NCBI RefSeq assembly: GCF_036067295.1
Contig: NZ_CP107954.1
Coordinates: forward strand, 8,246,001 to 8,310,000
Direction of reading: 5' to 3'
Source: Kribbella sp. NBC_00382
GTDB taxonomy: Bacteria > Actinomycetota > Actinomycetes > Propionibacteriales > Kribbellaceae
Length of the DNA: 64,000 nucleotides
Position numbers and translations under genes: made by a program. Position 1 is the stretch's first letter, and every line of letters starts with the position of its first letter. Below the pieces are notes generated by a model that did no database searches, was not told the DNA's origin, and saw only the letters and a program-made list of their open reading frames with translations. Shown here piece after piece: positions 60,510-63,020 of the stretch.

Positions 60510-60583
60510 CCCTCCGACGGAGGAGCCAGCAGGTCGCCGTCTCGCGTTCGGGTTCTCCCCCCACGCCGGCGCCCCACTCGCTC
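60510..60583. repeat. Left remnant of the tandem-repeat array, interrupted by IS110
   Basis: The segment from about 60557 to 60583 (CCCCCCACGCCGGCGCCCC onward) matches the end of the repeat units found right of the element (62095-63020). It ends TCGCTCCT, the last two bases being the CT core. A small CTCCG/CGGAG stem at 60512-60523 may end the permease message. Confidence 0.65.
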
Positions 60584-60596
60584 CTAATGAGTGTTG

Positions 60597-60785
60597 GCGG
60601 GTCGCCGGTTTGGCAGACTCGGGCTGGTAAGCCGCTGGCTGGTGAGCACTGGTCGCTCCTGGACGTTTGAGTTCTAGACGGAGAGCGTGCCCTGGCTGGT
60701 GACCGGGAGAAGTTGATCGCTGCTGGGATGTCGTGCCCGCCCCTTGCCGTGTGGTGGGGCGTGAGCACTGGTTCATTAGGTCGCT
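60597..60785 (+). ncRNA. Predicted IS110 bridge RNA with readable target and donor guides
   Basis: This is the non-coding left end of the IS. The left target guide TCGCTCCT (60653-60660) equals the left flank ending in core CT (60578-60585). The right target guide GACGGAG (60677-60683) is the complement of CTCCGTC at 62093-62099. The left donor guide CTGGGATGTC (60723-60732) equals the right IS end (62084-62093). The right donor guide TCATTAG (60773-60779) is the complement of CTAATGA at 60584-60590. Small stems lie inside each loop (60661-60674 and 60733-60768). The 12-mer GTGAGCACTGGT occurs before the left target guide and before the right donor guide. The ends of the transcript are estimates. 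Confidence 0.8.
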
Positions 60786-60844
60786 GACGGTTCTCCCGAC
60801 CGGCTTGCTGGGTTGGTTAATGGCGTCGAGTTTTGGGAGACGAT

Positions 60845-62071
60845 GTGAAGTTCTTTGTGGGTGATGACTGGGCCGAGGAGCATCACGATGTGGAGGTGAT
60901 GGATCCCGGAGGTCGGGTGCTGGCCAAGGCGCGGTTGCCGGAGGGAATTGCGGGGATGGCCCGGTTCCACGGGTTGCTGGCTGAGCAGTTCGGTGATGCC
61001 GATCCCGACGAGGTAGAGGTGCTGGTCGGGATCGAGACCGACCGGGGTCCGTGGGTGGCCGCGCTGGTGGCGGCGGGCTATCAGGTGTTCGCGGTGAACC
61101 CGTTGAGCGCGTCGCAGTACCGCAAACGGCACGTGGTGTCCGGGGCTAAGAGCGACGCGGCGGATGCGCATGTGCTGGCTGATATGGTCCGGACCGATTC
61201 CCACCAGCTGCGTATCGTGGCCGGGGATAGTGCCGAGGTGCAGGCGATCAAGGTTGTCGCCCGGATGCACAAGACGCTGATCTGGGAACGGACCCGGACC
61301 GGTCAGCGGTTGCGGCATGCGTTGCGGGAGTACTTCCCTGCCGCGCTCGTGGCCTTCGAGGACCTCGATGCATCCGACACGCTGGAGTTGCTGGCCAAGG
61401 CTCCTGATCCGGCCGCGGCGGCCCGGTTGACGACCGGCCAGATCAGCGCGGCGCTCAAACGGGCTCGTCGTCGCAGTGTCGGTGAGAAGACCGGCCGGAT
61501 CCAGGCGGCGCTGCGTGCCGAGCACCTCGGGCAACCCGCGGTGGTCACAGCCGCTTATGCCGCCTCGACCCGCGCGCTGACCGCGGTCCTGGTTGTTCTC
61601 AATGAGCAGGTCAAGACGTTGCAAGGTGAGGTGGAGGCGCATTTTGGCCGGCACCCGGACGCTGAAATCGTGTTGTCCCAGCCCGGTCTGGGATTGATCT
61701 TCGGCGCCCGGGTGCTCGCAGAGTTCGGCGACGACACCGGCCGCTACGCCAGCGCCAAAGCCCGCAAGAACTACGCCGCGACCAGCCCGATCACCCGTGC
61801 CTCGGGCAAGAAGAAAGTCGCTCTGGCCCGGTTCGTCCACAACGACCGCCTCATCGACGCCCTGATGGGCCAAGCCTTCACCGCGCTCACCGCCTCGCCC
61901 GGAGCCCGCGCCTACTACGACAAACAACGAGCCCGCGGCATCGGCCACAACCCCGCCCTGCGCCAACTCGCCAACCGGCTCGTCGGCATCCTCCACGGCT
62001 GCCTCAAAACCCGCACTCTCTACAACGAAACCACCGCCTGGTCCCACCAACCCCAAGCACTCGCTGCTTGA
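60845..62071 (+). CDS. IS110-family transposase (DEDD/RuvC-like plus Transposase_20)
   Basis: A 408-residue recombinase that uses a bridge RNA to join donor and target DNA. The N-terminal RuvC-like DEDD domain is FFVGDDWAEEHHDV, GIETDRGPW and SGAKSDAADAHVLADMV. A coiled middle is followed by the C-terminal serine-containing domain (LSQPGLGLIFGARVLAEFGD, ARKNYAATSPITRASGKKK). The GTG at 60845 has GGGAGA upstream and matches usual IS110 starts; a TTG at 60833 is a weaker option. The gene has no frameshift or internal stop, so it is probably functional. Confidence 0.92.
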   Translation: MKFFVGDDWAEEHHDVEVMDPGGRVLAKARLPEGIAGMARFHGLLAEQFGDADPDEVEVLVGIETDRGPWVAALVAAGYQVFAVNPLSASQYRKRHVVSGAKSDAADAHVLADMVRTDSHQLRIVAGDSAEVQAIKVVARMHKTLIWERTRTGQRLRHALREYFPAALVAFEDLDASDTLELLAKAPDPAAAARLTTGQISAALKRARRRSVGEKTGRIQAALRAEHLGQPAVVTAAYAASTRALTAVLVVLNEQVKTLQGEVEAHFGRHPDAEIVLSQPGLGLIFGARVLAEFGDDTGRYASAKARKNYAATSPITRASGKKKVALARFVHNDRLIDALMGQAFTALTASPGARAYYDKQRARGIGHNPALRQLANRLVGILHGCLKTRTLYNETTAWSHQPQALAA

Positions 62072-62094
62072 CACCCCTAGCCCCTGGGATGTCT

Positions 62095-63020
62095 CCGTCG
62101 CTCACCAGGCACTGAGCTCCCACCCACCCTGCACACGAGCTCCTACGTCGGCCGCTAGACGACAACAACTCGTTGCCGCGCGCAACCAGCCGATCTGGCG
62201 ACTCCGAGCCGAGTAGCCCTCCTGGGGTTGCCGTCCGGCGCAAGGAACTCCCCACGCCGGCACCCCGCCCGCACCTCCGTCGCCCACCAGGCGCTGAGCT
62301 CCCACCCACCAGGCGCTGAGCACCCACCCACCCGGCACATGAGCTCCCACGTCGCCCGCTAGGCGACAACAGCTCGTTGCCGGGAGCACCAGTTGCCTTG
62401 CGACTCCGAGCCGAGTAGCCGCCCCCGGGTGACTGCCCCGCGCAAGGAACTCCCGACGCGGCACCTCGCTCGCGCCTCCGCCGCTCACCAGGTGCTGAGC
62501 ACCCACCCACCCGGCACGCGAGCTCCTATGTCGCCGCTAGGCAACAGCATCTCGTTGCTGCGCGCAACCAATTACTTTGGCGGCTCCGAGCTGAGTAGCC
62601 ACCCCGGGTGGCTGTCCGGCGCAAGGAAGCGCCCCATGCCTGCTCCTCCGTCGCTCAACAGGCGCTGAGCTCCGGCTGGGCTTGCCCCCAGGTGGTGGAC
62701 ACCGGGGCCAAGCCCAGGCCCACCCCGAATGGGGGCTCGTCCGTCGCTCACGCGGCGCTCAGCTCCTACCCACCCGGATGCGGGCTCCTAGGTCGGCCGC
62801 TGAGCAACAGCAAGCCGGGTCCCTCACCCCTCCAAGGCGACCGCGTCGGCGGCGAAACCGGCGTCTTGGGTGGTGGATCACGCGTGTGCCGCGGCTCCTC
62901 ACATAACACCTACGTCGCGCGCTGGGTTAGAGCAGTTCGTGCCGGGCGCAACCGATCGGTTCGGCGACTCGGGCCGGGTGAATTCAACCCCCGGCGCCGG
63001 GTGGCGAGCGACTGAGCCAC
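62095..63020. repeat. Degenerate tandem-repeat array, 170-200 bp units, non-coding
   Basis: Units begin near CCGTCGCTCACCAGG at 62095, 62277, 62478, 62648 (short) and 62741, and a further partial copy lies at about 62900-63015. Shared blocks are GCGCTGAGCTCC, the CGTTGC-containing block, CGACTCCGAGCCGAGTAG and GCGCAAGGAACTCC. Unit lengths are 182, 201, 170 and 93 bp. No reading frame is maintained across units, and short frames inside it are shadows of the repeat. The IS110 element sits inside one unit. Confidence 0.75.

What the first reader, a model, noticed from the sequence alone, without database searches (positions are those of the whole stretch)
60584..60785. Complete bridge-RNA code readable in the IS110 left end, matching its actual insertion site
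Four short segments in the non-coding left end match the DNA around the two CT cores, in the order expected for a bridge RNA. The left target guide is 60653-60660 and the right target guide 60677-60683. The left donor guide is 60723-60732 and the right donor guide 60773-60779. Each pair flanks a small apical stem, so the guides form two internal loops. The target pair spells TCGCTCCT/CCGTC, exactly the sequence interrupted. The left donor guide matches 10 bases but has G where the core T would be. I know the bridge-RNA mechanism from IS621; finding all four guides here by eye makes this element a candidate for a characterised actinobacterial member.
Basis: partly seen in the sequence, partly recalled or inferred. 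Interest (0 to 1): 0.88.

Follow-up and report, generated by a model that had tools for sequence, protein, structure and literature searches.

The report
IS110 element with readable bridge RNA
A mobile element in an actinobacterium carries, beside its recombinase gene, a guide-RNA gene whose four short guides spell out the DNA it sits in and its own two ends; relatives with different guides sit in correspondingly different DNA, so this is a clear new member of the known bridge-RNA (IS110) family.

Summary
The IS110-group element (cores CT 60584-60585 and 62093-62094, one copy in the genome) has four guides where stated, in the IS621 order: 32 matched bases, against at most 22 in 3,000 shuffles. 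The interpretation also holds. Across 47 distinct guide sets from actinobacterial relatives, with guide positions and element ends fixed without looking at the target, the right target guide matches its own flank at 94-100% for +1..+4 (shuffled 29-57%), and left target positions -7..-1 all exceed shuffling. A covarying two-loop RNA fold leaves all four guides unpaired. A TTGACA-N17/18-TCTAAT promoter forms only across the joined ends. New details: the target is the most conserved stretch of a ~100-bp repeat dispersed in this genus; a sister species keeps the empty site; an 83%-identical element in the same genus is naturally re-aimed; in some relatives sites follow the right guide more strictly than the left. 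It is a well-supported new member of a known family, not a new kind of system. Transcription and activity were not testable here.

The parts
60584..62094 (+). IS110-group insertion sequence, core CT to core CT
   Evidence: orthologous and paralogous empty sites
60578..60585 (+). left target plus core, TCGCTCCT
62093..62099 (+). core plus right target, CTCCGTC
60592..60806 (+). predicted bridge RNA (ends approximate)
   Evidence: junction promoter position and consensus fold; no RNA data
60653..60660 (+). left target guide (LTG)
60677..60683 (+). right target guide (RTG)
60723..60732 (+). left donor guide (LDG)
60773..60779 (+). right donor guide (RDG)
60684..60684 (+). target-loop handshake base (A, faces T at left donor -1)
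   Evidence: by analogy with IS621
60780..60780 (+). donor-loop handshake base (G, faces C at left target -1)
   Evidence: by analogy with IS621
60845..62071 (+). IS110 recombinase, 408 aa, likely GTG start
   Evidence: Pfam PF01548 and PF02371, NCBIfam NF033542; catalytic D8, E64, D104, D107, S320
62068..62073 (+). TTGACA -35 box; pairs with TCTAAT formed across the circle junction
62095..62800 (+). tandem part of the dispersed repeat that is the target

Best explanation
A complete IS110-group insertion sequence that works as IS621 does. The element excises as a circle, joining its right end to its left end at the CT core. The joint assembles a promoter (TTGACA in the right end, TCTAAT made from T + core CT + AAT of the left end) that transcribes the left end as a bridge RNA. 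[quoted passage not shown] The second loop reads the element's own joint: LDG the right end, RDG the left end. The DEDD/serine recombinase exchanges strands at the two CT cores and inserts the element without a target duplication. The target is the most conserved segment of a dispersed intergenic repeat, which gives the element many addresses. Shown by sequence: ends, guides, guide-flank covariation, fold covariation, junction promoter motif, repeat target. Inferred from IS621: the excised circle, transcription, the RNA-protein complex and the chemistry.
For: Guides by letter and against shuffles. Guide-flank covariation over 47 guide sets with target-blind positions: RTG +1..+4 match 1.00/1.00/1.00/0.94 vs 0.36/0.43/0.57/0.29 shuffled; LTG -5..-2 match 0.68/0.72/0.80/0.84 vs 0.24-0.35; variable donor positions z 4.3-7.3. 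Consensus fold: 37 pairs, 96% of cells paired, 24 pairs with double changes vs 11.5 shuffled, slid structures 41-53%; guides unpaired. Junction -35 box and spacing conserved. Orthologous empty site. Recombinase family and catalytic residues. Dispersed repeat target. An 83%-identical element in the same genus has changed LTG and RTG and a correspondingly changed site.
Against: No RNA data. The single-sequence fold is unremarkable. Only one copy in this genome, so recent movement is not shown here. In some relatives LTG matches the left flank poorly (Trebonia 0.57, Ca. M. methanotrophicum 0.61).
Confidence: 0.95

Rival explanations
1. The four matches are chance or low-complexity resemblance in G+C-rich sequence, and the element picks its site by protein-DNA contacts alone.
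For: The single-sequence fold is no better than shuffles; the motif is repetitive in this genome.
Against: 32 ordered matched bases vs a shuffle maximum of 22; guide and flank change together in 47 guide sets.
Confidence: 0.02
2. The bridge RNA is real in the family, but this copy is a dead or immobile remnant that keeps its reading frame and guides only because it is recent.
For: Single copy; no movement shown.
Against: Intact 408-aa frame with all catalytic residues, all four guides matching, promoter boxes intact.
Confidence: 0.15
3. The left end mainly serves as an RNA that regulates recombinase expression, and the guide matches reflect a secondary role.
For: PMC11208160 notes that small RNAs were thought to modulate recombinase expression in ISPpu9.
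Against: Nothing about regulation predicts that loops covary with the flanking host DNA.
Confidence: 0.03

Closest known systems
IS621 (IS110 group, Escherichia coli) and its bridge RNA (PMC11208160, PMC11208158)
   Same: Long left end with the RNA gene upstream of the recombinase; target loop then donor loop; guide order LTG-RTG-LDG-RDG; CT core; LDG stops at the core C; promoter rebuilt across the circle junction; handshake bases; insertion into a dispersed extragenic repeat (REP in E. coli).
   Different: Recombinase 408 aa against 328 in the IS621 chain, with weak sequence similarity (phmmer E 3e-6). RTG here pairs 7 contiguous bases (4 in the IS621 structure). RDG matches 7 contiguous bases, where IS621's is discontiguous. 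LTG does not pair the core T in 13 of 47 guide sets of the subfamily (the window's does). The target repeat is a different one.
ISAar29, ISPpu10, ISHne5 and other predictions in PMC11208160
   Same: Same class of prediction: guides read by inspecting element boundaries against a folded non-coding end.
   Different: No sequence comparison was possible: their letters are not held here, and that ISAar29 is actinobacterial is inferred from its name.
IS1111 group with seekRNA (PMC11187229)
   Same: DEDD transposase and a non-coding RNA that names the target; natural re-aiming between relatives was reported there too.
   Different: IS1111 elements carry the RNA in the right end, have longer subterminal inverted repeats, and reverse the guide order; here the RNA is in the left end with the IS110 order.

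Membership tests
[quoted passage not shown]
   Both Pfam domains above cut-off; NCBIfam 'IS110 family RNA-guided transposase' 174.9 bits, cut-off 140; D8, E64, D104, D107, S320 align to the IS621 catalytic residues
IS110 group (bridge-RNA elements) | Long left non-coding end, short right end | tested here: met
   259 nt between core and start codon on the left, 21 nt between stop codon and core on the right
IS110 group (bridge-RNA elements) | Left-end RNA with a target loop followed by a donor loop, each with guides on both sides of an apical stem | tested here: met
   Consensus fold with covariation above shuffled and slid controls; guides unpaired
IS110 group (bridge-RNA elements) | LTG and RTG complementary to bottom-left and top-right target strands, core included, covarying with the target | tested here: met
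IS110 group (bridge-RNA elements) | LDG and RDG complementary to the RE-LE junction and covarying with it | tested here: met
   (variable donor positions z 4.3-7.3)
IS110 group (bridge-RNA elements) | Promoter reconstituted across the circle junction | tested here: met
   Sequence motif only: TTGACA in 40 of 47, spacing 17 or 18; TCTAAT is largely fixed by how ends were chosen
IS110 group (bridge-RNA elements) | Insertion without target duplication beyond the core dinucleotide | tested here: met
   Orthologous and paralogous empty sites
IS110 group (bridge-RNA elements) | RNA is transcribed, binds the recombinase and is needed for recombination | not testable with these tools
   Needs RNA sequencing and in vitro recombination
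IS1111 group (seekRNA elements) | RNA gene in the right non-coding end | tested here: not met
   The right end is 21 nt; fold and guides lie in the left end

The most novel reading that the evidence does not exclude
In this actinobacterial subfamily targeting follows the right half of the site more than the left: natural copies in several lineages obey RTG almost strictly while tolerating many LTG mismatches, and 13 of 47 LTGs do not pair the core T. That would be a looser target code than IS621's, where all nine target positions prefer perfect matches, and could explain how some relatives reach ten or more sites per genome.
Probability: 0.35. Interest if true: 0.5.

Novelty: new member of a known kind. 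Interest (0 to 1): 0.42.

Why it matters
It adds a cleanly delimited element with four guides, an empty site and a set of naturally re-aimed relatives from G+C-rich actinobacteria, for which I found no experimentally tested bridge recombinase in the papers held. The 47 natural guide sets with their targets are a ready test bed for the rules of target choice, especially right- versus left-half stringency and the handshake base. The dispersed repeat as target repeats the IS621-REP theme in another phylum with a different repeat.

Tried and rejected
More copies in the same genome: none. Rfam has no bridge-RNA match here; its only hit above gathering score is an antisense family inside the recombinase gene. 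Single-sequence folding gave no significant structure and partly paired LTG with RTG, so comparative folding was used. A first guide scan over relatives chose ends and guides by best match and is circular; it was replaced by target-blind positions. A possible 5' stem-loop (GGGTC/GACTC in the window, GAGTG/CACTC in L003) is visible by eye, but the alignment register differs between subgroups and the pair count was not made (one search failed on string length). Chance and protein-only targeting were considered and rejected. Literature: no paper found that tests a bridge RNA from this genus, Streptomyces or Mycobacterium; the library holds open-licence papers only.

Full report
The observation. 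The window holds an IS110-group insertion sequence between two CT cores, 60584-60585 and 62093-62094, in an intergenic repeat array. With the ends fixed, the summed exact match of four guides in the expected order is 32 bases; 3,000 dinucleotide shuffles of the left end gave a mean of 14.3 and a maximum of 22.

The ends. Joining the flanks gives ...CACTCGCTCCTCCGTCGCTCACC.... The same stretch, uninterrupted, is found in another species of the genus at the orthologous place, after the same gene end (L163), and in neighbouring units of the array in the window. The insertion is therefore precise, with no duplication beyond the core.

The target. Eight perfect copies of TCGCTCCTCCGTC and 47 with one mismatch occur in the genome, against 14 for the reversed control pattern. 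Most belong to a dispersed repeat of about 100 bp, around CGCTCGCTCCTnCGTCGCTCAC..GGCGCTGAGCTCCCACCCACCC, whose most conserved stretch is the bridge-RNA target. Matches through the junction also occur in several other genomes of the genus, most in G008, G026, G024, G036 and G004. This parallels IS621 and REP elements in E. coli (PMC11208160).

The relatives. The element is single-copy. Relatives came from genome contigs, from 197 genomes of the order and from 38 genomes of the genus. To avoid circularity, element ends were set by donor motifs only (CTAAT; GG[AG]TGTCT) and guide positions by alignment of the left end to the window. Ninety-six elements passed, forming 47 distinct guide sets with 80 distinct guide-target pairs. 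Own-guide matches exceeded shuffled guides at LT -7 to -1 (z 4.1 to 8.7), at RT +1 to +5 (z 6.0 to 10.5) and at the donor positions that vary (z 4.3 to 7.3); positions further out showed no clear signal. Shared ancestry among relatives is not removed by this shuffle, but the flanks are host DNA, not inherited with the element. An element 83% identical in DNA, in the same genus, has LTG TATACGTCCT and RTG TCGACAG, and its five copies sit at those sequences or one to two bases from them. This is natural re-aiming, as reported for IS1111-group elements (PMC11187229).

The RNA. A consensus fold of 46 left ends has 37 pairs in six helices, after leaving out three pairs that would join LDG to RDG. 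Of cells, 96.0% pair (shuffled 89.5%, slid structures 41-53%), and 24 pairs show changes on both sides (shuffled 11.5). The structure was derived from the same alignment, which favours it on cells paired. Projected on the window, all four guides are unpaired, in two internal loops around apical stems. The window's own minimum-energy fold is not informative.

The G after the left donor guide. It is invariant in the 46 aligned left ends. In IS621 the left donor guide is A123-C130 and also ends at the core C, followed by a linker (PMC11208158). It is the expected anatomy, not a flaw.

Handshake bases and promoter. The base after RTG is A in all 47 guide sets and faces T at LD -1. The base after RDG is G facing C at LT -1 in most sets; the two sets with A both face T, but they are related and may be one event. 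Across the joined ends all 47 sets form TCTAAT, 40 have TTGACA, and the spacing is 17 or 18. TCTAAT is largely guaranteed by the end motifs used, so only the -35 box and the spacing are independent evidence. In 45 of 47 the recombinase stop codon lies inside the -35 box.

Left against right. In multi-copy relatives natural sites match RTG +1..+5 at 0.80-1.00 and LTG -7..-1 at 0.57-0.96. The gap is widest in Trebonia (1.00 vs 0.57) and Ca. M. methanotrophicum (0.82 vs 0.61), and is small or reversed in the relatives from the window's own genus, G019, G014 and G028. Sites may have changed after insertion and copies share ancestry, so this is a lead, not a result.

Membership and novelty. Every sequence-testable feature of the IS110 group is met; transcription, binding and recombination could not be tested. 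IS1111-group membership is excluded by the position of the RNA. This is a new, well-supported member of a known kind.

Noticed in passing
61678-61759, minus strand: Rfam Ms_AS-4 (RF02464, actinobacterial antisense sRNA) matches above its gathering score (54.9 vs 50 bits) inside the recombinase gene; a real antisense RNA to IS110 recombinases, or just conserved coding sequence.
   Followed up: no
62095-62800 and about 25 dispersed places in the genome: A ~100-bp intergenic repeat, partly in ~180-bp tandem units, shared by several genomes of the genus; TCGCTCCTnCGTCGCTCA is its most conserved stretch.
   Followed up: partly
L134 (about 499-570) and L135 (about 484-560), genome G027 of the same genus: Two truncated left-end relics that keep the start of the same LTG (GGTCGCTC, GGTCG) and are followed by a shared sequence TCCGCTGACGCGATGTTCGGCCGATAGCGCG.
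   Followed up: partly
62068-62073: The recombinase stop codon TGA is embedded in the TTGACA box of the junction promoter, in 45 of 47 guide sets of the subfamily.
   Followed up: yes
LTG of 13 of 47 relatives' guide sets (e.g. L014, L033, L028, L080): The last LTG base is C, A or G where the core has T, so pairing of the left target guide with the core T seems dispensable in part of the subfamily.
   Followed up: partly
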